Part shown: in pieces, positions 8,488 to 33,774 of the stretch
How the letters are laid out: each line of letters begins with the position of its first letter
Position numbering within the stretch: position 1 is the first letter of the stretch
Source: Dactylosporangium sp. AC04546
GTDB taxonomy: Bacteria; Actinomycetota; Actinomycetes; Mycobacteriales; Micromonosporaceae
NCBI RefSeq assembly: GCF_022095675.1
Contig: NZ_JAHYSG010000003.1
Location: 124,001 to 188,000, forward strand
DNA length: 64,000 nt
Direction of reading: 5' to 3'
Made by a program: the position numbers and the translations under genes
Notes under the pieces: generated by a model
What the model saw: only the letters and a program-made list of their open reading frames with translations
Told to the model about the DNA's origin: nothing
Databases searched by the model: none

Positions 8488-9723
8488 GTGACGGTCGTGA
8501 AGGTCGCCGACCGCCTCAAAGACCGCTACGAGGTGCGGCACCCGATCGCCCGCAGCGGCATGGGCGAGGTGTGGCTGGCCCGAGACACGCAGCTCGACCG
8601 GACCGTCATCGTCAAGACCATCAACCCCGGCCGCCTCACCGTGGACCTCGTGCGCCGGTTCCGACGGGAGGCGCGCCTCACGGCGCGGCTGGATCATCCG
8701 GGGGTGCCCGCCGTGTTCGACCTCGACAACCACGACGGCGAGCCGTACCTCGTCATGCAGCGGATCGAGGGCATCCCCCTGACGGATCTCATCGCCGAGC
8801 AGGACGAGCTCCCGATCGCCCGGGTGTGCTCGATCGGGGCGCAGATCAGTAGCGTCCTGCTCGCCGCCCACCGCATCGGCCTGGTCCACCGTGACCTCAA
8901 GCCGGGCAACGTGATGGTGGAACGCAACGGTGCGGTCAAGGTGCTCGACTTCGGCGTCGCCGTGATCGACGGCGACAAGCGGTACTCCAGGATCACCCGG
9001 ACCGGCGAAGGTCCCGGCACGGTCGGCTACATGGCACCGGAGCAGATCGACGGCGCGGCCACCGACCACCGCACCGACCTCTACGGCCTGGGCGGCGTGC
9101 TGTTCGACCTGCTGACCGGCCAGCCGCCGTTCGGCGACGCCACGACGATGACCACGGTACGCCGCCAGCTGGGCAGCCCACCGCCGCGCCCGTCACTGCT
9201 GCGGCCACAGATCCCCGAGGCGCTCGACGACCTGGTACACGCGCTGCTCGCGTTGCACCCCGATGACCGGCCGGCCGACGCAGCCGAGGTGTACGAGGTC
9301 CTGGCGGCGCTGGCCGACGACCCGCCACCGATCCCCGGGGTGATCAGCGACGAGCTCGACCCGGTCCGCGCGTACGCGGCCGTCGTCGGGCGGCAACCGG
9401 TCCGGCACGGCATCGCGCCGAACACCACCGCCGCGCCACCCGACCGGGCCGCAGAGGCGGACCACCAGTTCGCGCAAGGCAATGTCCGGGTCGCCGCCCG
9501 ACTGTGGCGGGAATTGGCCGGCGAGTACGCCAACGACCATCCACTGTCGATCGAGTACCGGCTCCGCGCCGCCCGCGCGCATGTCGCGGCGGGCGAACGC
9601 GACCGTGCACTGCGCCAGTTCGAGGCCGTGCTCGCGGATCTGGCGCGGGCCGACGGCGCCGAGCACCCCCAGGCACAGACCCTGCGGGCGGAGATCGAGC
9701 AGTTACGGTACGGCGCACCATGA
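8488..9723 (+). CDS. Ser/Thr protein kinase (Hanks type), cytoplasmic
   Basis: Eukaryotic-type protein kinase of about 411 aa. The glycine loop is degenerate (ARSGMGEVWLA). The catalytic lysine is in IVKTI (residue 43), the HRDLKPGNV loop starts near 134, DFG is near 154, and GTVGYMAPEQ marks the activation segment end. The C-terminal 120 residues are helical and repeat-like (ARLWRELAGEYA, LRAARAHVAAGERDRALRQFEAVLADL), resembling TPRs. No membrane segment is visible, unlike PknB-type receptors. The start is GTG at 8488 or 8497, with no clear ribosome site. It diverges from the helicase-cas operon and ends 3 nt from the convergent next gene. Its target is unknown. Confidence 0.88.
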   Translation: MTVVKVADRLKDRYEVRHPIARSGMGEVWLARDTQLDRTVIVKTINPGRLTVDLVRRFRREARLTARLDHPGVPAVFDLDNHDGEPYLVMQRIEGIPLTDLIAEQDELPIARVCSIGAQISSVLLAAHRIGLVHRDLKPGNVMVERNGAVKVLDFGVAVIDGDKRYSRITRTGEGPGTVGYMAPEQIDGAATDHRTDLYGLGGVLFDLLTGQPPFGDATTMTTVRRQLGSPPPRPSLLRPQIPEALDDLVHALLALHPDDRPADAAEVYEVLAALADDPPPIPGVISDELDPVRAYAAVVGRQPVRHGIAPNTTAAPPDRAAEADHQFAQGNVRVAARLWRELAGEYANDHPLSIEYRLRAARAHVAAGERDRALRQFEAVLADLARADGAEHPQAQTLRAEIEQLRYGAP

Positions 9724-12696: not shown

Positions 12697-12864
12697 CCCA
12701 GACGACCAACGCCCGAGCCGACCGCCGTGGCGGCCGGCCAACCCGTGGTTTCCGCGAGGCCCGAGTGCGACAATGCTTTCCGATTCATCGCACTGTTGGA
12801 TCGACGTCGTCAGCAAGTGAACAAAATCGACCATCTTGATCTTCAACGCGCCAGGTCAGGAAGT
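12697..12864 (+). promoter_or_regulatory. CRISPR leader of array 1
   Basis: The 168 nt between the methyltransferase stop and the first repeat contain no gene. The part next to the array (12770-12864) is the most A+T-rich stretch of the locus. The whole segment is repeated with about two mismatches near its end at 42999-43166 before array 3, which marks it as the leader and sets array transcription on the plus strand. It contains GTGAAC at 12817 followed by ACCA, a partial match to the half-site in the two divergent promoters. Confidence 0.75.
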
Positions 12865-15800
12865 GTCGTCCCCGCGCACGCGGGGGTGGTCCCTGCCTGT
12901 GAAAGGCGAAGTCGATGACCAGCTCGTCGTCCCCGCGCACGCGGGGGTGGTCCTCGAAGCTGCTTTTTCGACGGCATCCGCATAGCGTCGTCCCCGCGCA
13001 CGCGGGGGTGGTCCGCTGAGCGCTAAGGTGAGCGGCAAGAAGAACACGTCGTCCCCGCGCACGCGGGGGTGGTCCCGGGTCGATGGCGCACCGCCCGGAG
13101 TACGGCACGTCGTCCCCGCGCACGCGGGGGTGGTCCGCTCGCCCGTTTCCGGGTCGGTTGCGGGGTAGGGTCGTCCCCGCGCACGCGGGGGTGGTCCGTG
13201 GCGCACAACCCAACTAGCAGCACTGAGGGCGTCGTCCCCGCGCACGCGGGGGTGGTCCGGAGCTGCCCGTGTCGCTGCTCTGGCGGCTGTAGTCGTCCCC
13301 GCGCACGCGGGGGTGGTCCGAAGGCCGCGGCAGCCCTCACGGCCGGCACGGCGTCGTCCCCGCGCACGCGGGGGTGGTCCCGCCGTCCAGCCCCACCGCA
13401 GCGTCACGAGCATGTCGTCCCCGCGCACGCGGGGGTGGTCCCTTGATGAGCTGCCCGGCCGGGCTCGCGAGCTAGTCGTCCCCGCGCACGCGGGGGTGGT
13501 CCGCTCTTGCACAGCAAGGGAAAAGTCATCCCGCGGTCGTCCCCGCGCACGCGGGGGTGGTCCCCAGTCAGCGAAGACGCTGGGCCTCGCCATGGCGTCG
13601 TCCCCGCGCACGCGGGGGTGGTCCGGCCGACGCACCCGTGACAACCCCAAAGCAACGTCGTCCCCGCGCACGCGGGGGTGGTCCTCCGGGTCCCGCCACG
13701 AGACAAGGGCTGTCCGTGTCGTCCCCGCGCACGCGGGGGTGGTCCCACGTCGGCGAGGACGCCGGCCGTGATCGAGATGTCGTCCCCGCGCACGCGGGGG
13801 TGGTCCCGGGCCGCGCAACGCCGGCACGCCGTCAGGACGGTCGTCCCCGCGCACGCGGGGGTGGTCCGTAATCGGCGGTCCTCGTTGAGATCCATTCCGC
13901 GTCGTCCCCGCGCACGCGGGGGTGGTCCCCGCCGGCCGCGATGCCGTACAGCGTGTATGTGGTCGTCCCCGCGCACGCGGGGGTGGTCCCTCGACCTTCT
14001 CGTCGACGCCGTACTTTTCCCGGTCGTCCCCGCGCACGCGGGGGTGGTCCTCCGCCGAGGTGAGCGTCCGATACAGCGCCGACGTCGTCCCCGCGCACGC
14101 GGGGGTGGTCCGTTGGCGAGGGGATCGGGAATCGGCGCCCAGTGGTCGTCCCCGCGCACGCGGGGGTGGTCCGTTGGCGAGGGGATCGGGAATCGGCGCC
14201 CAGTGGTCGTCCCCGCGCACGCGGGGGTGGTCCGTTGGCGAGGGGATCGGGAATCGGCGCCCAGTGGTCGTCCCCGCGCACGCGGGGGTGGTCCGTTGGC
14301 GAGGGGATCGGGAATCGGCGCCCAGTGGTCGTCCCCGCGCACGCGGGGGTGGTCCGTTGGCGAGGGGATCGGGAATCGGCGCCCAGTGGTCGTCCCCGCG
14401 CACGCGGGGGTGGTCCCCCGCCACACCGGCGGTCAGCTCGTCGGGAGCGGTCGTCCCCGCGCACGCGGGGGTGGTCCGCCGCTGAACATCCGCTGCGGCT
14501 CCGGCAGGCTGTCGTCCCCGCGCACGCGGGGGTGGTCCAGCCCGCACCCCGCGGATACACCCGAGCGGCGTGTCGTCCCCGCGCACGCGGGGGAGGTCCT
14601 GGGCATGGGCCGTCGACGAACACGGCGGACTCGTCGTCCCCGCGCACGCGGGGGTGGTCCCAGTTCGAGCGCCAGCTACCCGTGACCTGCTTCGTCGTCC
14701 CCGCGCACGCGGGGGTGGTCCCGGCGGGGATGCCGGCCATCGTCACCCCGCCGTGTCGTCCCCGCGCACGCGGGGGTGGTCCGCAGCTTCCCTAGCTGTC
14801 CGATGAGATGAAACGGTTGTCCCCGCGCACGCGGGGGTGGTCCGGTCGTTGCGTCCTTCTCCTCGACCTCGGCCGCGTCATCCCCGCGCACGCGGGGGTG
14901 GTCCCGGGCCTCCGGCAGCGGCACCCTCGACATCGACGTCGTCCCCGCGCACGCGGGGGTGGTCCCACCCGCACGTACTCGGGGCCGTTCGCCGTCACGT
15001 CGTCCCCGCGCACGCGGGGGTGTTCCCGGCAGCGGCCCGTCGTGCACGATCAGGTGGTCGTCGTCCCCGCGCACGCGGGGGTGGTCCCTCGCCGCGCTTC
15101 CGCTCGGTCATGCGGGTCGCGTCGTCCCCGCGCACGCGGGGGTGGTCCCTTCCACGGGCCCTCGTCGATGCGGTACCAACGCGTCGTCCCCGCGCACGCG
15201 GGGGTGGTCCGGTGCGCCCGGCGAGGCTCGGCGCCTGACGCAGGTCGTCCCCGCGCACGCGGGGGTGGTCTGGTGCCCTGCCGGCCATCCGGCCGACCTG
15301 GTCGTCGTCCCCGCGCACGCGGGGGTGGTCCGCCGATGAGCATGCGCCGGGCCGACGCCTCGTCGTCCCCGCGCACGCGGGGGTGGTCCGTTGTCGTAGG
15401 TGCAGGTCACACCCGAGTTCGTGTCGTCCCCGCGCACGCGGGGTGGTCCGCTCGGCGGCGGACGGCGGCTTGGGCTTGTCCGGTCGTCCCCGCGGACGCG
15501 GGGGTGGTCCGCAAACTGTTCTAGGTACGCCAGTAGCGAGCATGTCGTCCCCGCGCACGCGGGGGTGGTCCGGCGGGTGGCGACCCCCAGGACTGGCGGG
15601 GACTGTCGTCCCCGCGCATGCGGGGGTGGTCCGAAATCGCTGAGCAAATGCTGTTGTCGGAGAACGTCGTCCCCGCGCACGCGGGGGTGGTCCGGACTAC
15701 CACGGCCTGACGGCGGAGATCGCGAAGTCGTCCCCGCGCGCGCGGGGGTGGTCCCCGGTCGCCGAGCGACGGACGCGTCGAACCCGATGTCGTCCCCGCG

Positions 15801-17609
15801 CACGCGGGGGTGGTCCGGACACCCGGCCCAAGCGCAAGCTCGACCTGGGGTCGTCCCCGCGCACGCGGGGGTGGTCCTCGGCGACCGGGTCCGGCTGTCC
15901 GGTATGGCCGCGTCGTCCCCGCGCACGCGGGGGTGGCCCCAGCAACGCGTCGACCAGCTCGTTGCCGGTGGCGTCGTCCCCGCGCACACGGGGGTGGTCC
16001 GTCGTTGCAGTAGGGCTCGACGTAGACCCCGCTGTCGTCCCCGCGCACGCGGGGGTGGTCCCCGGCGGTATTGGTGTTCGCATTCTCGACGCGTGTCGTC
16101 CCCGCGCACGCGGGGGTGGTCCGTCGTCCACGCCGATCGGGCGTTCCCCGACTTCGTCGTCCCCGCGCACGCGGGGGTGGTCCCAGGTCGGGAACCCTGA
16201 TCCGGGATCCGGATGCGTCGTCCCCCGCGCACGCGGGGGTGGTCCGAGTTCTACGTCGGCGCTCGAGGCCCGGGGCCGGTCGTCCCGCGCACGCGGGGGT
16301 GGTCCCAGGAGGGTACCTGGATGGCAGAGAGGGCAGTCGTCGTCCCCGCGCACGCGGGGGTGGTCCGGGGTGGGCGCTCGGGCAGGTGTACGGGCTGCTG
16401 TCGTCCCCGCGCACGCGGGGTGGTCCGAACAGGTACGGCGTCGCCGCCTCGGGGATGACGTCGTCCCCGCGCACGCGGGGGTGGTCCCAGCCCGGCCACG
16501 GTGGGGGCGTCGCGCAGGACCTCGTCCCCGCGCACGCGGGGGTGGTCCGCCGTCCCTAATCGCGAACTGGCGGGCGGACCGGTCGTCCCGCGCACGCGGA
16601 CTTGCCGGCGCTGTTGCTCTCCCACGCGTCGTCCCCGCGCACGCGGGGGTGGTCCAGGAGGGCCTGAGCAAGAGCTGGGAGCGCATCACGTCGTCCCCGC
16701 ACACGCGGGGTGGTCCCGTGGCCTCCGATCGGTGTCTCGGTCTGGAACGGTCGTCCCCGCGCACGCGGGGGTGGTCCGGCCCCGGTGATGCAGACGCCGT
16801 CGACCTCCAGGTCGTCCCGCGCACGCGGGTGGTCCGCGGCGAACCGCGCCGAGCTGCACACCGACGAGGTCGTGCCCGCGCACGCGGAGGTGGTCCCGAG
16901 AGATTGCCGTCCGACCCGATGGCCCCGACGAGATCACTCCGGCCGTCCTAGCCGCCTGGGTCGAACTCGGCCGCGCCGTCGTCCCCGCGCACGCGGGGGT
17001 GGTCCCGGGCCGATGCCGACCACCGCGGCGCAGGCCGCGTCGCCCCCGCGCACGCGGGGATGGTCCGCCGATGTCGTCGGTGACGATCAGCTCGTAGATG
17101 TCGTCCCCGCGCACGCGGGGGTGCTCCCTGGCCGCGCCGCAGTTGCAGGATGCCCTTCACGTCGTCCCCGCGCACGCGGGGATGTTCCTGGCCTACGGGC
17201 GCTCTGACGGGGTACCCACCGGTCGTCCCCACGCACGCGGGGGTGGTCCCGGCCGCCCGGACCAGCGCCACATCAGCCGCGCGTCGTCTCCGCGCACGCC
17301 GGGGTGGTCCGTTGCCTGCCCCGGCCGGGGCGGCGTGCAGCCCGTCGTCCCCGCGCACGCGGGGGTGGTCCGGCGCAGGCGGAGCTGGCCAAGGCTGGTC
17401 TGTCGGTCGTCCCCGCGCACGCCGGGGATGGTCCCGTGCCGATCGTCATCGTCGCCGGCAGCTCCCCGCGCACGTGGTTGGTGGTCCGACCGTCAACACC
17501 GGCGACACCCTGAACCTGAAGTCGTCCCCGCGCACGCCGGGGTGGTCCGAATCAGGACAATGGCTGTCGGCCGTGGAACGCGTCGTCCCCGCGCACAGAG
17601 GGCCATTTT
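12865..17609 (+). CRISPR. CRISPR array 1, type I-E, about 77 repeats
   Basis: 28-bp repeats beginning GTCGTCCCCGCG and ending CGCGGGGGTGGTCC, with 33-bp spacers (61-bp period). The repeat forms a 7-bp stem (CCCCGCG/CGCGGGG) with a CA loop, typical of I-E. The first repeats are identical. Substitutions and length changes accumulate from about 15.4 kb, and the last copies are fragments, so the leader end is on the left. A single spacer (starting GTTGGCGAGG) occurs five times in a row at 14112-14388. One interval near 16899-16977 is about 80 nt, probably from a lost repeat. The adjacent cas genes match the repeat type. Confidence 0.98.
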
Positions 17610-18140
17610 CGCCCCCGGCCGTTTCCCAGATCAGGCTGCCCCAGCTTCAACCAGGCCACTGGCGATGGCATCGCGGAGAGGTCCTTCACCTCCCTCGACT
17701 ACGTGCGCCTCGTGGAGCACCGTCCTGACCGTTGACCTACCGCGTCCGTTGCCGACAGCGTGCCTCCAGAGAGATGCCTGAACCGTCGAGTCCTGACAGC
17801 TCACACGGCCGCTGCGGCGGCGCACCGTCCACCACAGCCGCTTGCGCCTCCTTCACCTACGCCACCCTCCCGACTAACCCGATAGCCCGCTCACCACGAC
17901 GACAGCGCCGAAGCCGGACAGTGAAACGCGCATTGATAGACGCATAGAGATCTAGGTACGTAGACGAACAACTGACCATGTGCACAATCTGAACTACGTG
18001 CAGACGCTCGTTTGCGCATGCACTCCACGTATTCGTGTTCACTCACCACTTGAACCCACCCTCGCCGATCTTCGGGCTGACCTGCGCACACAGCAGCGGC
18101 GATGACCCAACTAGGCACCATCTAGCTGCTCGTATACGCG
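17610..18140 (+). repeat. Conserved post-array tail, copy 1
   Basis: Noncoding 0.5 kb beyond the last degenerate repeat. It is nearly the same as 45311-45814 and, with an internal deletion, 36629-36925. Shared landmarks are GAGAGGTCCTTCAC, CCGCGTCCGTTGCCGACA, CACTCCACGTATTCGTGTTC and GGCACCATCTAGCTGCTCG. Open frames here have no coding signature and are not preserved among copies. It leads into the tRNA-like sequence in all three copies. Confidence 0.8.
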
Positions 18141-18233
18141 GTTGATTAGGCATCTCAGCATTGGTAGAGTCTGCGCATGGACACGCGTTTTGCGCGCGTA
18201 TCCCACAAATGGGGGTTCAAGTCCCTTCGACAC
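18141..18233 (+). other. tRNA-like sequence, copy 1 (candidate attachment site)
   Basis: Contains a D-arm-like CTCAGCATTGGTAGAG and a T-arm-like GGGGGTTCAAGTCCC, with a strong hairpin between (ACACGCG-TTTTG-CGCGCGT, one mismatch here). The 5' and 3' acceptor strands do not pair, and the segment between D-arm and hairpin is too long, so it is not a working tRNA. Two further copies lie at 36926 and 45815. Copies 1 and 2 continue with GTTAAC and a serine recombinase, while copy 3 diverges straight after TTCGACAC. Confidence 0.55.
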
Positions 18234-18317
18234 GTTAACCCCTGCGCGCGGACATCTCTGCGCAGGAGGTTCAATTCGGAAATTCTGCCTGAATCGTGCA
18301 GGCACAATCGCTGCACA

Positions 18318-20178: not shown

Positions 20179-20436
20179 TCAGCGGCCGAAAGGCCATAGC
20201 GAAGACGTGCGACGGCGACCGGCGAGGACCTGTCGCACCATGGCCTTGGTGATGTCGTGCCGGCGCTTACCGTAATAGATCTCGGCGTACACCTCCTCGG
20301 GCGTGAATCGCGGGTGGTCCTTCGCGACCTCGAGGATGTACTGGACCTTGGCGTCGTCGAGCTCGGGATCCGCCGGCGGGGTTCGCCGTCGGACGGGCCG
20401 TTGGATGCGTCGGCCGGATCTATCGAAATACGCCAC
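20179..20436 (-). CDS. 85-aa hypothetical protein
   Basis: Small charged protein with a GTG start at 20436 and an excellent ribosome site GGAGGTG ending 5 nt before it. The sequence begins VAYFDRSGRRIQRPVRRR, followed by a folded-looking helical part (ELDDAKVQYILEVAKDHP, then TPEEVYAEIYYGKRRHDITKAMVRQVLAG). The helical pattern resembles a small HTH or HEPN-like helical bundle, but no family is recognised. It is transcribed on the same strand as the recombinase, about 0.5 kb upstream of it, and is divergent from the response-regulator-like gene. Confidence 0.6.
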   Translation of the reverse strand: MAYFDRSGRRIQRPVRRRTPPADPELDDAKVQYILEVAKDHPRFTPEEVYAEIYYGKRRHDITKAMVRQVLAGRRRTSSLWPFGR

Positions 20437-20609
20437 GTGAGCACCTCCAGGCGCATCGGCTGATTCGACGGTATTGATACGGAGCGTTGCAGGTCCATGA
20501 CTGATAGCGCGCAACCATGACCGTCCAATGGCAGATTCCCGCCGGGCCATAAGCTGTCGGCTGCTATCGCTGCTGGTAGCGCGTCGGTCACGGGGAGGTG
20601 CGGGGTCGA

Positions 20610-21221
20610 GTGACCGTTCACGTTGCGGTCGTTGATCCCCTGCCGGTATTCCGGCGCGGTGTCGCGACCGCAGTGTCGGCGTTGGGCCATCTCGTGGAGG
20701 AACCGCAGGACATCGAGGCATGGGCGCGAGCGCGGCCGGGCGGCATGGTACTGCTGACGCTGGACTCTGCTGCGGACGTGGACAGGGTGGCGGCTCTGTG
20801 CCGCATGCGGCCTCGTCCGCTTGTCGTCGCGTTGCCCTCGAGCGACGTGTCCTCGCTGGGCGTGCGCGCGCTGCAGGCCGGCGCCAGGTCGGTGGTGGCC
20901 CGCGCGGCGACGGTGCCGGCGTTGCAGCGGGCAGTGTCCGCGACGCTCGACGGCGAGGCAGTGATGCCGGTCGGGGTTGCCGACCTTCTGTTGACCGGCC
21001 GGCCTGCAAGACTTCCGCGCCGGCCGGCCCCCACGGCGCAACAGGTCGCCTGGCTGCTGGAACTGTCCCGCGGACGTACTGTGGCGAGCCTGGCCGCGGA
21101 GGCAGGCTATTCGGAGCGAGCGATGTACCGGCTGCTCCAAGCGCTGTATCAGCAGATCGGCGTGAGCACTCGGCTGGAAGCGATCATGCTAGGGCGCGAG
21201 GCGGGTTGGTTCGATGGTTAG
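20610..21221 (+). CDS. LuxR/NarL-type response-regulator-like protein
   Basis: Protein of 203 aa with a receiver-like N-terminal half (VTVHVAVVDPLPVFRRGVATAVSALGH, then GARSVVARAATVPALQRAVSATL) and a C-terminal LuxR-type HTH (RTVASLAAEAGYSERAMYRLLQALYQQIGVSTRLEAI). The usual phospho-acceptor Asp is not obvious: VLLTLDSAADVDRV holds the nearest candidate, and the acidic pocket is reduced to one Asp near the start, so it may be an atypical, phosphorylation-independent regulator. The GTG at 20610 has GGGGAGG about 11 nt upstream; GTG at 20598 is possible. Its 3' end overlaps the convergent STAND gene by 38 nt, so it could influence that operon. Confidence 0.7.
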   Translation: MTVHVAVVDPLPVFRRGVATAVSALGHLVEEPQDIEAWARARPGGMVLLTLDSAADVDRVAALCRMRPRPLVVALPSSDVSSLGVRALQAGARSVVARAATVPALQRAVSATLDGEAVMPVGVADLLLTGRPARLPRRPAPTAQQVAWLLELSRGRTVASLAAEAGYSERAMYRLLQALYQQIGVSTRLEAIMLGREAGWFDG

Positions 21222-24200
21222 CCGACCGGCCCGGCCGGAGGCGTGCCAGTTCTGCCAACACGGGCTCGAGTCGCGCGTCGCCGCCCGCGATCGTCTCCAC
21301 CATGAACCTCACCCGGTCGTCGAGCCCGCGCGTCTGCTCGGCCGTCGCCGGCCGGGCACGGCGGAATGCATCCAGGGCCCAGGCAGGTTCGGCGCCGCCG
21401 GTGAGGACGGAGTAGCACCGGGCAATCCCGGTGAAGTCCCAGGCCACGAGATCATCATCGTCCGCGCTGGTGCGTTTGGTCGTCTCCTCGGCGAGTTGCC
21501 GGAACAAGTCCCGCGCGGTGGCTGGACGGCCGTAGCAGTGCGCGATGATCGCCCGCAGGGCGAGTTCCACGGTCTCCCGACCGGCCATCCGGTATCGGGC
21601 CGCCTCTTCGATCGCTTTTCGGGCCGCTTCAAGATCGTTCAGGTGGACGTGGGTAAGCGCGAGGATGGTGAGGGATCGCCGCAGGTTGATCGGATCTCGT
21701 TTGTCGCGAGCGACGTCAACGGCCCGCTGCGCCGCCGAGTGCGCCTCGCGGTACAGGTCCCGATACAGATACAGGTCAGCGGTCGACGTGAGCAGCTCCG
21801 CTCGCGCCGGGAGATCAGGGAAGGATGCGATCAGTTCGGCACAGCTGGCCACCATCGTCAGCGCATCCGGGATCTGGCCCAGCTCGGCATACCAGCGCAT
21901 CAGCCGCAGCGCGGCGTCCGAGGCCAGGTCGGGGTTGGTCTCGCGCACCGCTTCGAACGCCGCCAAAGCATCCACGACCGCGCGCCCGTAGTTGCCGTGC
22001 CGCTGCCGGCAATCGGCCAGACCGATGAGCGCGGCCGCGCGGTCGGCACCGTCATAGCCCTCCCCGTCGTCCTCGTCGGCCAGGCAGAGCGCCAACTGGT
22101 ACTGCTGCTCGGCAGCGACAAGATAGTCGTGCTCCCAGAACATGTAGCCCATGCCGATATAGATTCTGCGCAACGCCTCGCGCTCCTGATCTTCCTTGGC
22201 GATGGTGAGGGCTGCGGCATAGGCCTCCGATGCTGCCGGGAAGTTGCCGCTGTACGAGTAGATGTCGCCCAGGGCGGCCAGGTTCATCATCTCGCCCTCC
22301 CGGTCGTCGCCGAGCCGGCCGCGCACGGCCTCCCGCTGGCTGCGTAAGTCGGCGCCGCTACCCCAGCGCCGGACCAGATCGTCCATCGACTCGATCAGGC
22401 TATGCGCCTGCTCGTACATCTCCGCCCTGAGCCAGACATCGATGCGCGCAAAGTGCAGGTTCAGATCGGCGATGCCACGGACGCTGTCGTCGTCAGGCTG
22501 CATGGCCTGCAGGACCCTGGCCGCCCGAAGCAGCAACCGACGGCGAGTCGGCGGCTTCATATCGTCAGTGTCCGGCGAGTCTGCAACAAGGCGCTCGAGG
22601 ACCGGCTCGACCTCCGTCGGGCGCAGATACCGCCGGCCGTCACGGGACTCCAGGACGAGCCGGGCCGCGACGAGGGCACGCAGTGCGGGCTCAATCTGCG
22701 CCGCGGGCACGTACGGACGGACGACGTCGGCGATGGCGTCCGCGCGGACCGGGATGCCGAGCGCCGCCAGGCCCTCCGCAACTCGCTGCTGTTCGGCGGG
22801 TAGGTGTTCAACGAACCAATGCAGCAGGCGCCGGTGCACGTCGATTGCCGACAGGGCGGACAGCCAGGGTCCGGCCTCGCGAACGTGCAGCCCGGGCGGG
22901 TCGCTGCTGAGGGCGGCATGTAGGAGTTCGGCCAGCCTGGGGTTGCCGGACAGGCCGCCGTGGATCCGCCGCAGTTCGTCCGTCGAGAGGGCGGCGAGGC
23001 CGTATCGGTTACCCGGATCAAGTTCGGCGAACTGCTCACGCAGCGACGGCGGTTCAAGGCCCTCAAGGCTGATCCGGCATGCAGTACCCGTCCACGCCAG
23101 GCCCGTGGTCGCCTGCGGTACATGCTGTGTCACAAACACGACTTTGACCGGAGGCCGCATCCGGCTCTGGAGGGCCTCAAGAGCCAGGTCGAACTCCGAG
23201 TCGCGCATGGTGCGATCGTCCTTCAGGAGATGCTCTGCCGAGTCCAGTACGATCACCGGTCGGGCCCGGCCCATAAGATCAAGGCCGTCCAGGGCGATCT
23301 CCAGGCGTGCGCGCGCAGACGGGCCGGCGATACGACCGGATCCGGGTGGCTCGATGTCCTCGATCAGCGCCGTCACGCCGATCTCGTCGTACGGTGCGGC
23401 GTCATGCCAGCGCACCGTCGAGTCGGCATCCTCCGGGTCCGGCGGGCCCAGGTCGACGAGCACTTCGCGCACCAGCGCGGTCTTGCCCATCCCGGGCGGC
23501 CCGCTCACCACGATGACGGACGTGACCTGATCTTCCAGTGCTGCGCGGAGCCGGCTCCGTTGGTCGATGCGGTTGACGAAGACAGGTTTGCCCTCCACCG
23601 TGCGGCTGTCTCTCCGCGGGAGCGATACGGCCGCCGCCTCGCGGACCGCGCCCGCGTCGAATTGCATGGACGAGCCCGACTGTGGGCCCGTCTGCCCGAG
23701 CAGGACCCGCGCGAGCCGGCCCGCCAGCCGCGAGCACCATCGGCGAGCGTTGGGCGGACCCGAGGTGTACGCGCTGTGCAGCATCGCCTGCGCCAGGAGG
23801 GACACCTTCAGCTGCCGGTGCCATTGCCCGGGATCCCAGGCCTCGTCCTCCACGAACTGCAGCGTCGGTTCGCGAAGCGCGTCGATGATCTTACGCACGC
23901 TGCCCGGCATAGCGTCGTCGAGGCTGGCGTCGCGGTAGTCGCGTTCCAGGTATGCCAAGAAGGCCGCCTGGCTGTGCGGAGAACCCGCGCCGATCTCGCG
24001 CCAGCAGAGTGAGACGAGCAACGCGGCCAGGTCGCGGCTCAGCGGCGCCTTGCCGTTATACGTGGCCAGGTCGACAAGCCGGAACCTCGCCGGAACGACG
24101 GTGCCGTTGCGCACGGGCACAAGAATGTTGTCGCCATGCAAGTCGCCGTGCGTCCGACCCACCAGGTAGTGAATCTTCGTGGACATCGCCGGCGAATTCG

Positions 24201-24834
24201 CTGCTGCCAGCCACCATGGATTGGGCAGCGGTGCGCCCTCGGCCGGGAAATCCAGGAATGGGGTCGAGAGCAAACCACGCCGGTCCGCCCAGTCGCGCAG
24301 CCATCCGTCTTCCGTAAAGCTTTCGCCCAGTTCACACAGTAAAAGCTCGGCCATGGTCGAGTGCGCGCTGTCGCGATCGGGGCCAGCCCATTCGGCAAGC
24401 ACGGTGCTCCAGATCGCCTTGCATGCCGCCGGAAGTTGATCGGGATCAACGGTGCCGAGTGGGTCACCCTCGGCAATGAACTGGCCGATCACGAGGCCGT
24501 CGTTCGGGCATGGAATGGCCGGAAACGCGATCTTGGTGAGGTGCTGACTGAACCTTTCCGGTGATTCCTGCACGGCGGCGTCATGCCGTCGGCTTTCCCG
24601 CTGGTGGTTCATCGGCACCGGAGGGCAGTACTTGATCACGCACCAACGCGGGTCGGGACTTCCGCTGACCTTCGCCAGTTGAGCCGTCGCCAGTCGCGCC
24701 CCGGTGAAGCCGCGACGGATCAGGTCAATGCTGTTGTCGCGGATTTCGGTGCCGTGGTCGAGCAGCGACTCGATGACTGTCGAGGCGATGGCCGCGTCCT
24801 CGAACGCGCGGGTCAGCTCCTCGAGGGCGGTCAT
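21184..24834 (-). CDS. APH-like kinase / STAND NTPase / TPR fusion, 1216 aa
   Basis: Three-part protein. Residues 1-380 look like an aminoglycoside-phosphotransferase-type kinase: candidate ATP lysine in CVIKY (68), catalytic loop THGDLHGDNILV (228-239), and a metal Asp in FRLVDLATYNG (255). Residues 420-900 form a STAND-type NTPase with P-loop SGPPGMGKTALV (444-455), Walker B-like PVIVLDSAEHLL and a winged-helix region. The C-terminal 300 residues are TPR-like (YSYSGNFPAASEAYAAAL, AEQQYQLALCLADED). STAND proteins act as sensors that oligomerise on a trigger. The ATG at 24834 overlaps the stop of the membrane-protein gene as ATGA. The pairing suggests sensor plus pore effector. Confidence 0.8.
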   Translation of the reverse strand: MTALEELTRAFEDAAIASTVIESLLDHGTEIRDNSIDLIRRGFTGARLATAQLAKVSGSPDPRWCVIKYCPPVPMNHQRESRRHDAAVQESPERFSQHLTKIAFPAIPCPNDGLVIGQFIAEGDPLGTVDPDQLPAACKAIWSTVLAEWAGPDRDSAHSTMAELLLCELGESFTEDGWLRDWADRRGLLSTPFLDFPAEGAPLPNPWWLAAANSPAMSTKIHYLVGRTHGDLHGDNILVPVRNGTVVPARFRLVDLATYNGKAPLSRDLAALLVSLCWREIGAGSPHSQAAFLAYLERDYRDASLDDAMPGSVRKIIDALREPTLQFVEDEAWDPGQWHRQLKVSLLAQAMLHSAYTSGPPNARRWCSRLAGRLARVLLGQTGPQSGSSMQFDAGAVREAAAVSLPRRDSRTVEGKPVFVNRIDQRSRLRAALEDQVTSVIVVSGPPGMGKTALVREVLVDLGPPDPEDADSTVRWHDAAPYDEIGVTALIEDIEPPGSGRIAGPSARARLEIALDGLDLMGRARPVIVLDSAEHLLKDDRTMRDSEFDLALEALQSRMRPPVKVVFVTQHVPQATTGLAWTGTACRISLEGLEPPSLREQFAELDPGNRYGLAALSTDELRRIHGGLSGNPRLAELLHAALSSDPPGLHVREAGPWLSALSAIDVHRRLLHWFVEHLPAEQQRVAEGLAALGIPVRADAIADVVRPYVPAAQIEPALRALVAARLVLESRDGRRYLRPTEVEPVLERLVADSPDTDDMKPPTRRRLLLRAARVLQAMQPDDDSVRGIADLNLHFARIDVWLRAEMYEQAHSLIESMDDLVRRWGSGADLRSQREAVRGRLGDDREGEMMNLAALGDIYSYSGNFPAASEAYAAALTIAKEDQEREALRRIYIGMGYMFWEHDYLVAAEQQYQLALCLADEDDGEGYDGADRAAALIGLADCRQRHGNYGRAVVDALAAFEAVRETNPDLASDAALRLMRWYAELGQIPDALTMVASCAELIASFPDLPARAELLTSTADLYLYRDLYREAHSAAQRAVDVARDKRDPINLRRSLTILALTHVHLNDLEAARKAIEEAARYRMAGRETVELALRAIIAHCYGRPATARDLFRQLAEETTKRTSADDDDLVAWDFTGIARCYSVLTGGAEPAWALDAFRRARPATAEQTRGLDDRVRFMVETIAGGDARLEPVLAELARLRPGRSANHRTNPPRALA

Positions 24835-25727
24835 GACCGTGGGAACCGCGCTTCCAACTCGCGCATCTTGACCTCGAAATCGAACCTGTCCTGGTCGTGA
24901 TAGTGCCGGAAGTACGAGGTCGGCAGGCGCGGCTGGAGCCGCCGCATGTTGTACAGCGTGTCCTGCACCTGACGGGCGAAGAGGGTCAGGGCGGCCGGAC
25001 CGGCCAGCACCGGCGACGATGGGTCATCGATGACGGCGCGCACTATGCGGAGAACCCGCAGCCGCTCGTGGGTGCTCGCTATCTGATGGCGGTAGATATC
25101 CAGGCACAGCAGCAGCAGACCGAGCGAGGGTAGGAACCAACCCGTCACCAGCCGGTTCAAGGTCCCGTCGGTGCCGAGGGTGACCAGAACGCCCGCCGCG
25201 GACCACAACACGAGTAGGCCGAGCATCATCTGGGCGAATCGGAGCCGGATTCGTGAGCCCCAGGCCAGGTTCTGCTCCAGGCAGAACAGCACGTCATACG
25301 GCTCGGCGGCCTTGGCCACAAGGTAATAGCCCTGCAGCCGGCGCTCGTCGCCGCGGAACCGCCGGCTGAGCCGGCTCACCTCGTCGTCACTGATCCGGTC
25401 GCCGACCGTGACCTGATTCCACGGCAGACCGAGCAGGTCGGCGTCGAACATCTCCTGCAGCGTCGCCGCGAGGCGTAGGTACCGCTCGGCCCACGGCGCC
25501 ATCACGATCTTGTAGAAGGCGGCCCAGAGCGTGCCGCCGAGCGCGACCGCCGCGCCGTACTTCGAGCCAGTCTCGGTGAGCAGGCCCACCACCGCGAGCG
25601 CAACGGACACACCGAGGCTCAGCGCCTGCGCCCGCTGATTGTAGCGATGCGTCACGGCGACCGCCTTGAGCAGGCGCAGCGCTGCGACCCCGTCCTGCCG
25701 ATCGGTCATGGAGCGGATGGTGGTCAA
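24831..25727 (-). CDS. S-4TM-like four-helix membrane protein, putative pore-forming effector
   Basis: Protein of about 298 aa with two pairs of membrane helices. The first pair is ALSLGVSVALAVVGLLTE plus AAVALGGTLWAAFYKIV. The second is MMLGLLVLWSAAGVLVTL plus LVTGWFLPSLGLLLLCLDIY. Between them lies a soluble block with LPWNQVTVGDRISDDEVSRL, RLQGYYLVAKAA and CLEQNLAWGSRIRLRFAQ. This layout and the EQNLAW-R-R-A pattern match the S-4TM family of predicted pore-forming effectors found in bacterial conflict systems. TTG at 25727 has GGGAGG a few nt upstream; ATG at 25709 is the alternative start. It is coupled by ATGA to the STAND gene downstream. Confidence 0.72.
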   Translation of the reverse strand: MTTIRSMTDRQDGVAALRLLKAVAVTHRYNQRAQALSLGVSVALAVVGLLTETGSKYGAAVALGGTLWAAFYKIVMAPWAERYLRLAATLQEMFDADLLGLPWNQVTVGDRISDDEVSRLSRRFRGDERRLQGYYLVAKAAEPYDVLFCLEQNLAWGSRIRLRFAQMMLGLLVLWSAAGVLVTLGTDGTLNRLVTGWFLPSLGLLLLCLDIYRHQIASTHERLRVLRIVRAVIDDPSSPVLAGPAALTLFARQVQDTLYNMRRLQPRLPTSYFRHYHDQDRFDFEVKMRELEARFPRS

Positions 25728-26741: not shown

Positions 26742-29700
26742 GTGACGGTCAGCGACCAACCGAGATTCACAGAGGGTAACGTCGGTCCGGCTTCCATCGA
26801 GTCCACGTCAACGTCTGACTGCGAGGCAAAGATCAACGTCATCGTCCCAGAGTTATGGGCCGGGCCGGTCACATCGTCCGGCGGCGAAATCCGTCAGCTC
26901 ATCGAGCCGGAGGCCATCGCGCCTATCGACGCGACCGCTGAAGGCGGGTTGGTTGCGCGCACCGCGCGGCACACGTGGCCGGTCATGGACCAGCCACCGG
27001 ACGACGCAACCCATCCGCAAGCACTGGCCCTCATTCGCTCCCCGCAAACCGTTGACGCCGCTACGGCGCAATGGGCGGGACAAACTTGGGCAGTGGCCGA
27101 TCCCGCTGAAGTTTCCGAAGGGATCGCGGATGGCTTCCGGTTCGTTGAGGGCACCACCGACGGCACGCGGGCGGGACTTCGTCGGCCCCAGATCGGGGCC
27201 GTACATGCCGTTCTCGGGTACTGGGCGAGCGCGCCGCAGCAGCCCGCGACCGTGGTGATGCCGACCGGCACCGGGAAAACCGACACGATGATCGCGCTGC
27301 TTGCCACCGGGCAGGTACAACGCCTTCTCGTCGTCGTGCCGAGCGACGCCCTCCGCACGCAACTGACCCGGAAGTTCCAGACCTGGGGCGTGTTGGCCGC
27401 CGTCGGCGCCCTGCCGGACACGGTGCCTTTCCCCGTTGTCGGAACGATCCGGCACGGCTTCACATCAACGGACGAGGCAGTGCAGTTCGCCGAGCGGTGC
27501 AACGTCATCATCACAACGGTCGCGGCGCTGTCCCGGTCGGACGATGCGATCCAGCGAGCGCTCGTCGACGAGTGCAGCCACCTGTTCGTCGACGAGGCCC
27601 ACCACATCGCGGCGGCCTCGTGGGACCGGATCCGGCAGTACTTCGACGATCGGTACGTGGTGCAGTTCACAGCGACGCCGTTCCGCGCCGACGGGCGTCA
27701 CCTCGGCGGTCGGATGGTCTTCACGTTCCCGCTGCGCGAGGCCCAACGGCTTGGCTACTTCTCCCGGATCGACTACCTGCCGGTCACCGACTTCACCGAT
27801 CCAGACCGAGCGATCGCCCGAGCGGCGATCGAACGCCTGCGGGCGGACATCGCAGCTGGCCACGACCATCTCATGATGGCCAGGGTCAACACGATCAAGC
27901 GGGCCGAACAGGTCCTCGCGATCTACCAGGACCTGGCTGACGACTTCGCGCCGGTCATGGTGCACAGCGGCGTGCGAACGACACTGCGACGAGCCAGCCT
28001 GCAAGCCATCGAGCAACGGACGAGCCGAATCGTCGTCTGCGTGGACATGCTCGGCGAGGGCTACGACCTGCCCGCGCTGAAGGTCGCCGCCATCCACGAC
28101 GCACACAAGTCCCTGCCGATCACGCTGCAGTTCCTCGGCCGGTTCACCCGCGCCGCGTCCGAGCGGCTCGGCGACGCGTGCGTCGTGGTAAACCGACCGG
28201 ATCCGGAGTACGACGAGACGTTGCGCGACCTGTACGCCGACGACGCCGACTGGAACCAGGTCATCCGGGAACTGGCCCAGAGCGCGACCGGCGCCGAACA
28301 ACGCATCAGCGACTTCGAAGCAGGCTTCCAACTCCTGCCCGACGAAGTCCCGATCCGCGCCTTGGCACCGAAGATGAGCACGGTCGTGTACCGCACCCAG
28401 TGCGCCGACTGGTCACCACTCGGCGTCCACGAAATCTTCCCGGAACAAGCACTGCTCACCCCAACCGTCGCCGTCAACAGGCAGCACAACGTGGCGTGGT
28501 TTGTCACCGAAGAGCGCACCCCGGTCCAGTGGGGCAACCTGCACACGGTCGACGAGATCGCCTACAACCTGTACGCACTCTACTGGGACGCTGGCCGCGG
28601 CCTGCTCTACATCAACAGCTCCAATACCGACAGCGTGCACCGGCCCCTGGCCGAGGCAGTCGCGGGCGACACGGCGACCATCATCAGCGGCGAGCAGGTC
28701 TACCGGGTCATGGCCGGCATCCACCGACCCGTGCCCACCAACATCGGCCTGCTCGACGTCCGCAGCCGAGCCCGCCGGTTCTCAATGCACGTCGGCGCCG
28801 ACGTCGCCGAGGGCTTCCCCACCGCCGAGGCACAGACCAAAGCCAAGACCAACATCTTCGCCTACGGATACGAAGACGGCTCGCGCGTCGGATTCGGCGG
28901 CTCACTCAAAGGACGCGTCTGGAGCAACCGTGCCGCGCGCTCACTCAGCGAGTGGCGAGACTGGTGCGACGCCGTCGGCGAGAAGCTTACCGACGACGCC
29001 ATCGCCGTCGACGACGTCATGCGCGGCTTCATCCGACCCGTGATCATCAACGAACGGCCACCGCTCACGCTCATCGGCGTCGACTGGCCCCACGCGATCT
29101 ACGTCAACACCAGCGACGAGACGCTCCTCCGTTTCGGCGGGCAGACGGCGCGACTGTTCGACACTGAGCTACGAGCCGCATCGCACGAACCGCACGGGCC
29201 GATCGAGTTCGAGGTCGTGGCACCCGCCTGGACCGCCCTATACACCGCGACCTTCACCGACAAAGGCATCGTCTACAAGCCCGCGCAGCAGCAGGTGTAC
29301 GTGCAGGCGCCACGCTCCGAGTTCCCCTTGACCGAGCTGCTGGAGCGCGAGGGACTCACGATGTACTTCGAGGACGACACGACGGTCGAACAAGGCGGCG
29401 TCCTCCTCCGGCCCGACCGGACCATCGAGCCATTCCCCAAGAACAAACTGACGACCGTCGCCTGGACAGGCATCGACATCAAGAAGGAATCGCAAGGCCG
29501 CGACCGGGATCCCACCTCAATCCAGCACCACGTCATCCAACGCATCATCGCCGAACGCGACTGGGACATCGTCATCGACGACGACGGCTCCGGCGAAGCC
29601 GCCGACATCGTCGCCATCGCAACCGACCCGCTCGGCATGATCATCAAGCTGGTGCACTGCAAGTACTCATCAGAGCCCACGCCCGGCGCCCGCGTCGCAG

Positions 29701-30020
29701 ACCTCTACGAACTCTGCGGGCAAGCCCACAAGTCCAACGTCTGGAAAAACGCCCCTCGCCTGCTCGACCACCTCATCAGGCGGGAGCGCGATCGCAGAGC
29801 CAACCACGGCCACACCGGCATCGAAGTCGGCGACGACGCCACTCTCCGCAGTCTCCAGCATCGGGCCCGGGTGACCAGGGCTCGGCTCGAGGTAACCATC
29901 GTCCAACCGGGGCTGTCCGCTGCCCGCGCGAGCGCAGCTCAACTGCAACTACTGGCCTGCGCCGAGACGTACCTCTACGAGACCGCCAACGCACCACTCG
30001 AGGTGCTCTGCAGCAGTTAG
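26742..30020 (+). CDS. DEAD/DEAH helicase with C-terminal restriction-type nuclease domain
   Basis: Protein of 1092 aa. The N-terminal 140 residues have no recognised domain. An SF2 helicase follows: RRPQIGAV (Q-like), Walker A MPTGTGKTD (173-181), DEAH in LFVDEAHHIA near 283, FTATPFR, then CVDMLGEGYDLPALKVAAI and QFLGRFTRA. The last 150 residues hold a PD-(D/E)xK-like signature: DIVIDDDGSGEAADIVAI, then IIKLVHCKYS, with Asp and the HCK lysine spaced as in Mrr-type nucleases. A helicase-nuclease of this kind is expected to cut foreign DNA, as type I/III-like restriction or defence factors do. The start is GTG at 26742. It stands alone, divergent from the S-4TM operon. Confidence 0.78.
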   Translation: MTVSDQPRFTEGNVGPASIESTSTSDCEAKINVIVPELWAGPVTSSGGEIRQLIEPEAIAPIDATAEGGLVARTARHTWPVMDQPPDDATHPQALALIRSPQTVDAATAQWAGQTWAVADPAEVSEGIADGFRFVEGTTDGTRAGLRRPQIGAVHAVLGYWASAPQQPATVVMPTGTGKTDTMIALLATGQVQRLLVVVPSDALRTQLTRKFQTWGVLAAVGALPDTVPFPVVGTIRHGFTSTDEAVQFAERCNVIITTVAALSRSDDAIQRALVDECSHLFVDEAHHIAAASWDRIRQYFDDRYVVQFTATPFRADGRHLGGRMVFTFPLREAQRLGYFSRIDYLPVTDFTDPDRAIARAAIERLRADIAAGHDHLMMARVNTIKRAEQVLAIYQDLADDFAPVMVHSGVRTTLRRASLQAIEQRTSRIVVCVDMLGEGYDLPALKVAAIHDAHKSLPITLQFLGRFTRAASERLGDACVVVNRPDPEYDETLRDLYADDADWNQVIRELAQSATGAEQRISDFEAGFQLLPDEVPIRALAPKMSTVVYRTQCADWSPLGVHEIFPEQALLTPTVAVNRQHNVAWFVTEERTPVQWGNLHTVDEIAYNLYALYWDAGRGLLYINSSNTDSVHRPLAEAVAGDTATIISGEQVYRVMAGIHRPVPTNIGLLDVRSRARRFSMHVGADVAEGFPTAEAQTKAKTNIFAYGYEDGSRVGFGGSLKGRVWSNRAARSLSEWRDWCDAVGEKLTDDAIAVDDVMRGFIRPVIINERPPLTLIGVDWPHAIYVNTSDETLLRFGGQTARLFDTELRAASHEPHGPIEFEVVAPAWTALYTATFTDKGIVYKPAQQQVYVQAPRSEFPLTELLEREGLTMYFEDDTTVEQGGVLLRPDRTIEPFPKNKLTTVAWTGIDIKKESQGRDRDPTSIQHHVIQRIIAERDWDIVIDDDGSGEAADIVAIATDPLGMIIKLVHCKYSSEPTPGARVADLYELCGQAHKSNVWKNAPRLLDHLIRRERDRRANHGHTGIEVGDDATLRSLQHRARVTRARLEVTIVQPGLSAARASAAQLQLLACAETYLYETANAPLEVLCSS

Positions 30021-33081: not shown

Positions 33082-33774
33082 ATGCCTGCGACCGGCCCCG
33101 CCGACATCGTCCGTCACCAGATCCACACCGTGCTCGACACGCCCCGAATCGCCGATCTGGTCGCGGCCTACTTCCACCCGGACGGCCCGTTCGCCGGCGC
33201 CACCTTCGACACTCTCGGCGACAACCCGCCGAACGAGGTCACCCGGGACGACCTGCTGGCCGCCACCCTGCTCGACATCTCCTGGCGTCCGCTCGCCGTC
33301 CGCCGGCTGGAGGCCGAACGCGACCACGTCGGCGTCATGCTCGCCCGCATTCCCCTCAACCGGGACCTGTGGGAGGCCACGCCCTCGGAGCTGCAGGCCG
33401 CAGAGGACCCCTACCGGTGGCTCGACGGCCTGCCCTACGTCGGCGCGACCATCGCCAGCAAACTCCTCGCCCGCAAGCGGCCCCGCCTCGTACCGATCTA
33501 CGACACCGTGGTGCAGGACCTCCTCACCACCCCAGAGGACCAGTTCTGGACCACCCTCGCCGACGCGCTCACCGACCCCGGCATGCGCGACGATATCGAA
33601 CGACTCCGCCCCACCACCGCACCAACCGTCAGCGTCCTGCGCCTGCTCGACGTAGCGATCTGGATGCGCGGTAGCCGCTCCAGCACCGCTCGGGCGGCTC
33701 GGGCCGCCACCGGCATCGACGCGGTCGCCGCGCAGGCCAGGTACGCGCCCGGACGGCTGACCGAGTCGGAATAG
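33082..33774 (+). CDS. DUF6308-like protein
   Basis: Protein of 230 aa resembling an actinobacterial family of unknown function. Characteristic parts are FAGATFDTLGDNPPNEVTRDDLLAATLLDI, LWRPL-like SWRPLAVRRLEAER, and GLPYVGATIASKLLARKRPRLVPIYDTVVQDLL. The middle segment (LPYVGATIASKLLARKRP) looks like a helix-hairpin-helix DNA-binding turn. The ATG is at 33082. Members are often found on mobile islands. No enzymatic motif is seen and the role is unknown. Confidence 0.68.
   Translation: MPATGPADIVRHQIHTVLDTPRIADLVAAYFHPDGPFAGATFDTLGDNPPNEVTRDDLLAATLLDISWRPLAVRRLEAERDHVGVMLARIPLNRDLWEATPSELQAAEDPYRWLDGLPYVGATIASKLLARKRPRLVPIYDTVVQDLLTTPEDQFWTTLADALTDPGMRDDIERLRPTTAPTVSVLRLLDVAIWMRGSRSSTARAARAATGIDAVAAQARYAPGRLTESE

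What the first reader, a model, noticed from the sequence alone, without database searches (positions are those of the whole stretch)
21184..25727. S-4TM-like pore protein coupled to an APH-kinase/STAND/TPR fusion
The sequence shows two minus-strand genes overlapping by ATGA. The first has four membrane helices in two pairs with an S-4TM-like soluble block. The second fuses a phosphotransferase-type kinase (HGDLHGDN and LVD motifs intact), a STAND-type P-loop NTPase (GPPGMGKT) and TPRs. S-4TM proteins are predicted pore-forming effectors in conflict systems, and STAND-TPR proteins are typical sensors. The kinase adds a third activity that could modify the effector or a target. The operon sits in a mobile defence island. 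I know of no characterised system with exactly this pairing.
Basis: partly seen in the sequence, partly recalled or inferred. Interest (0 to 1): 0.85.

Follow-up and report, generated by a model that had tools for sequence, protein, structure and literature searches.

The report
Kinase-gated membrane-pore immune operon
A soil actinobacterium carries a conserved gene set that pairs a predicted membrane-pore protein with a sensor protein that is also a kinase, and comparison with relatives suggests an infection-triggered self-killing device in which a kinase, not the usual signal-making enzyme, controls the pore; no function has been tested.

Summary
24831-25727(-) is an S_4TM protein (Pfam E=1e-61). 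21184-24834(-) is kinase + P-loop NTPase + TPR with catalytic and Walker motifs intact. The ATGA overlap is kept in 8 of 8 related loci (7 distinct).

The S_4TM tree splits deeply. On one side 14 of 19 rows have a CD-NTase (CBASS). On the other, 34 of 51 rows have a related APH-like kinase nearby and 17, one Actinoplanes clade, have neither; one CD-NTase row sits at its base. No S_4TM locus had both. The host genome has no SMODS match. The same kinase-NTPase-TPR + HTH core occurs elsewhere beside other small membrane proteins, including TM-Sa_NUDIX.

Best reading: a modular STAND-type conflict system. The sensor activates the kinase, which opens a swappable membrane effector, probably through a phosphorylated small signal. 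Parts and linkage are well supported; kinase substrate, trigger and antiphage role are inferred.

The parts
24831..25727 (-). S_4TM (SMODS-associating 4TM) membrane effector gene, 298 aa, TTG start (a start six codons later is possible); hydrophobic segments at residues 35-53, 59-77, 167-185, 193-211
   Evidence: Pfam PF18159 E=1e-61; PADLOC '4TM' effector models; hydropathy on 34 aligned sequences
21184..24834 (-). Kinase - P-loop NTPase (STAND-like) - TPR fusion, 1216 aa; overlaps the S_4TM stop by ATGA
   Evidence: ATGA overlap in 8 of 8 related loci, 7 distinct
23680..24834 (-). APH/TCAD9-like kinase domain, residues 1 to about 385 of the fusion
   Evidence: K68 in 34 of 35 rows and H229, D231, N236, D255 in 35 of 35 rows of S_4TM-linked kinases (two genomes counted twice); hhalign to APH 75.8%
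24127..24150 (-). HGDLHGDN catalytic loop (residues 229-236)
   Evidence: sequence; invariant residues
22855..23589 (-). P-loop NTPase domain, about residues 416-660 (AAA_16/AAA_22; STAND-like)
   Evidence: AAA_16 E=8.3e-7, AAA_22 E=2.3e-5, both just under their cut-offs; D531 (Walker B) invariant
23479..23502 (-). Walker A GPPGMGKT (residues 445-452)
   Evidence: G445, P446, G448, G450, K451 invariant in 14
21235..22302 (-). C-terminal TPR array, about residues 845-1200, presumed sensor
   Evidence: TPR_12 E=2.7e-12; profile match to solved TPR proteins, best E=6.5e-15, a designed TPR
20598..21221 (+). c17: pseudo-receiver + HTH regulator gene (LuxR/NarL-like by eye), convergent, overlapping the 3' end of the fusion gene by 38 bp
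   Evidence: in 7 of 7 window-type cassettes with enough 3' sequence and in 14 of 14 P-loop kinase fusions of 1161-1284 aa without S_4TM (model built partly from these); Pfam only weak HTH
20179..20436 (-). c24: small basic HTH-like protein, about 85 aa (GTG start most likely; other in-frame starts exist)
   Evidence: HTH_32 E=5.6e-5, under its cut-off; in 7 of 7 window-type cassettes (model built from 6 of them); start candidates

Best explanation
This is a mobile conflict (probably antiphage, abortive-infection) cassette. Shown by sequence: an S_4TM membrane protein, a kinase-NTPase-TPR fusion whose gene overlaps it, and two small DNA-binding-type genes that travel with them. Inferred: the TPR array recognises an invader-derived trigger; the STAND-like NTPase assembles or switches on ATP binding; the fused kinase is thereby activated. 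The active kinase makes a phosphorylated ligand, or less likely phosphorylates the effector itself. The signal opens the S_4TM pore, the membrane depolarises, and the hypha dies or stops growing before phage release. The convergent pseudo-receiver/HTH gene (c17) sets expression of the cassette. The kinase would stand where a CD-NTase stands in CBASS, with interchangeable membrane effectors.
For: Domain content and intact motifs. S_4TM directly upstream in 6 of 6 full-length homologous loci, plus L146. ATGA overlap in 8 of 8 loci, 7 distinct. Kinase catalytic residues kept across S_4TM-linked lineages. In 300 family genomes 23 of 57 S_4TM places have the kinase within 1.5 kb, 27 within 8 kb (3 small fragments of 60 listed places left out). 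S_4TM tree: 19 rows (14 CD-NTase, 5 no partner found) against 51 rows at 96/94 support (34 kinase-linked, 17 neither); one CD-NTase row, L051, joins the base of the latter. No S_4TM locus had both CD-NTase model hit and kinase. No SMODS match in the host genome. Effector swapping: 13 of 14 fusions with c17 but no S_4TM have another small membrane protein beside them; two larger fusions with c17 have TM-Sa_NUDIX, E=4.8e-36 in the one scanned. A separate large P-loop NTPase gene follows S_4TM and kinase in L134 and L138 (AAA_16 E=3e-4 in the one scanned; no Pfam TPR match). Death-like domain bDLD3 (E=1.3e-22) on the Frankia kinase, VMAP-M0 and NB-ARC on the L139 kinase. Island context.
Against: No function was measured. 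The window kinase is not among 46 Pfam APH matches in its genome and its TCAD9 score is below the cut-off. 17 of 51 kinase-side S_4TM rows have no kinase nearby, so the pore can exist without it. The Micromonospora pair and part of the Actinoplanes clade lie in recurring neighbourhoods without obvious defence genes, which fits a housekeeping role as well. No phage record matches S_4TM. P-loop kinase proteins without c17 exist (L130, L139, L141, L151, L186), and for most short kinases no membrane partner was found, though only S_4TM and TMCC were looked for there. Nothing distinguishes a diffusible signal from direct phosphorylation. The A2 kinase model was built from S_4TM-linked kinases, which favours linked hits. 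The window's assembly is rated 11.54% contaminated.
Confidence: 0.45

Rival explanations
1. Direct control: the kinase phosphorylates the S_4TM protein (or binds it), and the STAND-TPR part only places or switches the kinase; no diffusible signal exists.
For: Strict adjacency and gene overlap in the window type; separate neighbouring genes in the linked loci, as for interacting partners.
Against: The same kinase-NTPase core is beside several membrane families that look unrelated by eye, which would each need a phospho-site; S_4TM and Sa_NUDIX are by Pfam name SMODS-associated, that is, from nucleotide-signal systems.
Confidence: 0.25
2. Toxin-antitoxin type: S_4TM is toxic by default and the kinase fusion keeps it shut (by phosphorylation or binding) until a trigger relieves it.
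For: Small upstream gene overlapping a larger partner; HTH-type genes at the cassette end.
Against: 17 of 51 kinase-side S_4TM rows have no kinase nearby and would be unprotected unless a distant gene serves; the P-loop + TPR architecture is that of an activator rather than a simple antitoxin.
Confidence: 0.15
3. Not defence but a developmental or stress regulator of membrane state in filamentous actinobacteria.
For: Recurring gene neighbourhoods for the Micromonospora pair and for 10 of the 17 kinase-less Actinoplanes S_4TM loci; S_4TM in 53 of 300 family genomes.
Against: The window type lies beside a CRISPR-Cas locus and recombinases, its flanks differ between genomes, and a more distant pair is on a Streptomyces plasmid.
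Confidence: 0.12
4. An ordinary CBASS effector next to an unrelated STAND gene.
For: S_4TM is a SMODS-associated effector family by name and matches PADLOC '4TM' effector models.
Against: No SMODS match in the genome; no CD-NTase model hit in any kinase-linked S_4TM locus; conserved pairing with the kinase.
Confidence: 0.03

Closest known systems
CBASS with 4TM (S_4TM) or TM-NUDIX effectors
   Same: Same effector families by Pfam name (PF18159; PF18167), membrane effector beside a larger enzyme gene
   Different: No CD-NTase model hit in the locus and no SMODS match in the genome; kinase-NTPase-TPR instead; effector on the other side of a deep split in the S_4TM tree
STAND NTPase defence proteins (Avs/AVAST, bacterial NACHT, AP-ATPase systems)
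   Same: P-loop NTPase followed by repeats as presumed sensor
   Different: The membrane effector is a separate gene and the fused N-terminal domain is a kinase; Avs4 matches are marginal (E=0.21 and 0.082)
MoxR-vWA ternary conflict systems with APH-like kinase effectors and TCAD9 (Kaur et al. 2020, PMC7159879; passages read)
   Same: TCAD9/APH-like kinase; relatives carry bDLD3 and VMAP-M0, domains of such systems
   Different: No vWA or MoxR among the window genes scanned; the kinase is fused to STAND-TPR and paired with a membrane protein. The passages read report a few examples of active APH kinases; S-4TM and 4TM do not occur in the text searched
bDLD3-linked apoptosis-like networks (Kaur et al. 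2021, PMC8195603; passages read)
   Same: The Frankia relative has kinase-bDLD3 next to a TPR-CHAT gene
   Different: The window protein has STAND-TPR in place of a death-like adaptor; no such pairing in the passages read, and 4TM has no occurrence (S-4TM itself was not searched there)

Membership tests
S_4TM (PF18159) | Full-length profile match above the curated cut-off | tested here: met
   209 bits against 26.9, profile 3-291 of 291
S_4TM (PF18159) | Forms a membrane pore | not testable with these tools
   four hydrophobic segments only
CBASS | CD-NTase (SMODS) gene in the locus | tested here: not met
   no SMODS match at E<=1e-3 in the genome; no CD-NTase model hit in the 20 kb around the operon
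CBASS | Effector of a CBASS family | tested here: met
   SMODS-associating 4TM by Pfam; PADLOC '4TM' effectors (that these are CBASS models is recalled)
STAND NTPase | Walker A and B P-loop NTPase followed by repeat sensor | tested here: met
   AAA_16/AAA_22 plus TPR, invariant motifs
STAND NTPase | Match to a curated STAND family above cut-off (NACHT, NB-ARC, nSTAND) | tested here: not met
   nSTAND1, NACHT and NB-ARC only sub-threshold
APH-like kinase | Catalytic HxDxxxxN, metal-binding Asp, N-lobe Lys | tested here: met
   K68 34 of 35 rows; H229, D231, N236, D255 35 of 35 rows
APH-like kinase | Pfam APH PF01636 match or demonstrated fold | tested here: inconclusive
   not among 46 APH matches of the genome; hhalign 75.8%, E=2.3e-5, over the catalytic core only, control 0.14%; structure prediction off
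TCAD9 (PF19974) | Score above 40 bits | tested here: not met
   17.3 bits in the query; E<=1e-3 in 11 of 14 aligned members, best 5.1e-10
MoxR-vWA ternary system | Adjacent MoxR and vWA genes | tested here: inconclusive
   none among the window ORFs scanned, but not every window ORF was scanned
Antiphage defence system | Protection against phage | not testable with these tools
   needs an assay

The most novel reading that the evidence does not exclude
A new class of signal-gated immunity: an APH-fold kinase, switched by a fused STAND-TPR sensor, makes a phosphorylated small-molecule second messenger that opens interchangeable membrane effectors (S_4TM, TM-Sa_NUDIX and others), doing the work of the CD-NTase in CBASS. 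S_4TM would have changed its partner from a nucleotide cyclase to a kinase near the base of one clade.
Probability: 0.3. Interest if true: 0.92.

Novelty: new variant of a known kind. Interest (0 to 1): 0.75.

Why it matters
S_4TM proteins are known as predicted effectors of cyclic-nucleotide immunity. Here a well-supported part of the S_4TM tree is largely tied to a kinase, with no cyclase found beside it. Together with the exchange of S_4TM for other membrane proteins around the same kinase-NTPase-TPR core, this makes a testable claim: a kinase can serve as the signal-making step of bacterial immunity. It also links S_4TM to bacterial death-like domains and apoptosis-type networks of multicellular actinobacteria. 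Which molecule the kinase modifies would show how different membrane effectors read one signal.

Tried and rejected
Ordinary CBASS: rejected because the genome has no SMODS match and kinase-linked S_4TM loci have no CD-NTase model hit. TCAD9 as a survey probe: too noisy, 249 of 394 genomes matched at E<=1e-3 but only 2 above the cut-off; replaced by my own kinase alignment A2. Solved-structure search gave nothing usable for S_4TM (best E=0.064, a mechanosensitive channel) and only weak kinase-like hits (RNase L E=0.058; a MAP-kinase-kinase-like protein E=0.41). Phage origin of S_4TM: no match in the phage collection. Plasmids: 4 records carry a distant S_4TM, one beside a related kinase-TPR gene. 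Literature: searches for S-4TM, 4TM with CBASS, TCAD9, and APH kinase with STAND (listings seen) showed no description of this pairing; papers not under open licences, such as Burroughs et al. 2015 (recalled), are not held, so this does not show that it is unpublished.
Full report
1. Observation. The 298-aa product of 24831-25727(-) matches Pfam S_4TM over its whole length (E=1e-61) and nine PADLOC effector models described as '4TM'. Mean hydropathy over 34 aligned relatives gives four membrane segments in two pairs with a soluble stretch of about 90 residues between them. The 1216-aa product of 21184-24834(-) has TPRs (TPR_12 E=2.7e-12) and an AAA_16-type P-loop domain (E=8.3e-7, slightly under the curated cut-off). 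The N-terminal part matches TCAD9 weakly in the query (E=0.0028) and better in relatives (11 of 14 at E<=1e-3, best 5.1e-10). In the query and 13 homologues (33-69% identical to it) K68, H229, D231, N236, D255, G445, P446, G448, G450, K451 and D531 are invariant.

2. The kinase. The window kinase is not among the 46 Pfam APH matches in its own genome. A profile-profile comparison of 16 kinases of this kind (A2) with 12 APH domains from that genome (A5) aligns the catalytic loop and metal-binding Asp only, at 75.8% probability, E=2.3e-5; the control against S_4TM gives 0.14%. The best solved-structure match by profile is RNase L in its kinase-like part, E=0.058, not significant. The kinase call is well supported at the active site and unproven as a fold.

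3. The pair. One pattern-limited scan of 84,980 species genomes gave 7 loci, 6 with the full-length fusion. All 6 have an S_4TM gene 65-75% identical to the window's directly upstream (Streptomyces three times, Actinoplanes, Actinophytocola, Actinomadura). The ATGA junction is kept in 8 of 8 loci, 7 distinct. The protein database search (8000 candidates scored) gave 68 proteins including the query, 57 covering 90% or more of it. Of 61 relatives with a listed contig length, 29 share it with one of the 65 best S_4TM hits: an indirect hint, partial by construction.

4. Two missed genes. In 7 of 7 cassettes of the window type with enough 3' sequence (window, L014, L016-L019, L146) there is c17, a roughly 200-aa gene convergent with and touching or overlapping the end of the fusion, and c24, a roughly 90-aa same-strand gene further on (the search models were built partly from these loci, the first clustering is). 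The Actinoplanes contig (L015/L145) ends too early to tell. c17 looks like a degenerate receiver plus LuxR/NarL-type HTH: the usual phospho-acceptor Asp is not conserved (by eye, alignment; Pfam gives only weak HTH matches). c24 matches HTH_32 below its cut-off (E=5.6e-5). Beyond the cassette the neighbouring genes differ between genomes.

5. S_4TM and kinase in other arrangements. In 300 genomes of the window's family 53 have S_4TM; in 394 genomes of the class, 13. I fetched flanks for 56 of the places and for the 12 outside the window's genome. A kinase profile finds relatives next to many: head-to-head with a kinase ORF of 752-917 aa in 18 distinct Micromonospora loci; same-strand and adjacent in L134 and L138, where a P-loop NTPase gene of about 1550 aa follows after one opposite-strand gene (AAA_16 E=3e-4 for L134; Pfam shows no TPR in it); and about 1.8 kb from kinase ORFs of 1459-1540 aa with a P-loop in L130, L139 and L141, of which only L139 was scanned (NB-ARC, TPR, VMAP-M0 E=2e-7). 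In Frankia (L053) the kinase ends in a bacterial Death-like domain (bDLD3, E=1.3e-22) and lies beside a TPR-CHAT gene. In 35 rows (two genomes counted twice) H229, D231, N236 and D255 are present in 35 and K68 in 34. With model A2, 23 of 57 S_4TM places have a kinase within 1.5 kb and 27 within 8 kb. Of 70 kinase places, 23 of the 27 scoring at least 340 bits, and 0 of the 43 lower ones, are within 1.5 kb of S_4TM (3 small fragments left out on each side). A2 was built from linked kinases, so the score contrast is partly built in; adjacency by chance is negligible all the same (my estimate: about 0.01 expected).

6. The S_4TM tree (71 rows; pieces under 700 bases and two duplicate loci dropped) splits deeply. 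One side holds 14 rows with a CD-NTase model hit within 4 kb (some hits weak) and 5 with no partner found. The other has 51 rows at 96/94 support: 34 kinase-linked (33 within 2.5 kb, one at 5.6 kb) and 17 with neither, all one Actinoplanes clade. L051, with a CD-NTase, joins the base of this side (52 rows, 100/100). The tool warns of long branches, so I rely on the split, not on details. No S_4TM locus has both a CD-NTase model hit and the kinase, and the window's genome has no SMODS match. CD-NTase and kinase thus look like alternative partners.

7. Effector swapping. The P-loop kinase fusion with c17 occurs without S_4TM in 14 loci with ORFs of 1161-1284 aa (L213 and L214 look near-identical). 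In 13 of 14 a different small membrane protein lies beside the kinase end: a 2-TM protein with a helical tail, same strand (L193, L197, L206); and, on the opposite strand, a 3-TM protein of about 170-190 aa (L198, L213, L214, L216, L218), a 3-TM protein of about 357 aa (L195, L211), and a 2-TM protein of about 270-297 aa (L220-L222). In L217 transposon-type genes (by eye) lie there. TM counts are by hydropathy, and for L195, L198 and L218 by eye; that the families are unrelated is also by eye. Two larger fusions with c17 (L187, L188) have a TM-Sa_NUDIX protein directly upstream (E=4.8e-36 for L187; L188's looks near-identical), which also matches PADLOC '2TM' effectors. Cases that do not fit: P-loop kinase proteins without c17 (L130, L139, L141, L151, L186), and many short kinases with neither c17, S_4TM nor the 2-TM family; other partners were not sought there.

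8. Setting. The operon lies beside a type I-E-like CRISPR-Cas locus: Cse1, Cas3 and an array with 70 copies of a 36-nt unit in 12700-18300. Around it are an N6 methylase, two serine recombinases, a ResIII helicase and a tyrosine integrase. A more distant S_4TM/kinase-TPR pair is on a Streptomyces plasmid.

9. Mechanism. Shown: parts, linkage, conservation, partner exchange. From family knowledge (recalled): STAND proteins sense with their repeats and switch by ATP; S_4TM is a predicted pore (the name 'putative pore-forming effector' appears). Inferred: sensor, then kinase, then pore. I favour a phosphorylated small signal over direct phosphorylation, because one core serves several different membrane proteins and two of these families are SMODS-associated, that is, from systems with diffusible nucleotides. 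This step is the weakest.

10. Literature. Kaur et al. 2020 (PMC7159879) and 2021 (PMC8195603), passages read, describe APH-like kinases and bDLD3 in conflict systems of multicellular bacteria; S-4TM and 4TM have no occurrence in the first text, 4TM none in the second. The note that TCAD9 is associated with vWA-MoxR-VMAP comes from one passage, a figure legend of PMC10910872. The searches listed in Tried and rejected showed no description of this pairing.

Noticed in passing
12864-17219 (window): Large type I-E-like CRISPR array beside Cse1 (1628-3295 -) and Cas3 (3317-6292 -). Five identical repeat-spacer units follow each other at 14084-14388, a repeated spacer duplication.
   Followed up: partly
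34830-36757 and 43158-45439 (window): More CRISPR-repeat-like stretches, seen only as recurring VRGDD / PPRARG / TTPACAGTT strings in the frames.
   Followed up: no
8569-8967 (window, + strand): Weak Pfam APH matches (43.2 bits together) in a long + strand frame in the cas gene region (contig 3 positions 132569-132967).
   Followed up: no
26742-30020 (window): 1092-aa ResIII/DEAD helicase gene (E=2.6e-23) divergent from the operon, a possible separate defence gene.
   Followed up: no
33082-33774 (window): DUF6308 protein (E=5.2e-45) near the integrase in the island.
   Followed up: no
L196:2710-8495: A locus with a CD-NTase-like gene, a NUDIX-TM gene and then the APH-like kinase on one strand: kinase and cyclase together, without S_4TM.
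   Followed up: partly
L187:8220-9089 and L188:8149-9018: TM + SMODS-associated NUDIX protein directly upstream of a P-loop kinase fusion with c17.
   Followed up: partly
L053:3583-9397: Frankia kinase with a C-terminal bacterial Death-like domain bDLD3, divergent from S_4TM and convergent with a TPR-CHAT gene.
   Followed up: partly
L124-L126, L128, L129, L131, L133, L135-L137: Ten S_4TM genes of one Actinoplanes clade in a recurring neighbourhood (by eye FtsX-like permease, TetR, acyl-CoA dehydrogenases) with no kinase or CD-NTase nearby: a possibly domesticated S_4TM.
   Followed up: partly
L110:11660-12157 and 18 further loci (L020 and L122 are one contig): A secreted I36 peptidase-inhibitor-like gene recurs next to the head-to-head S_4TM/kinase pair of Micromonospora.
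   Followed up: no
protein P0133: A 452-aa S_4TM relative (70% identical over 83% of the query) listed with HAD-type hydrolase domains as well, a possible S_4TM-HAD fusion.
   Followed up: no
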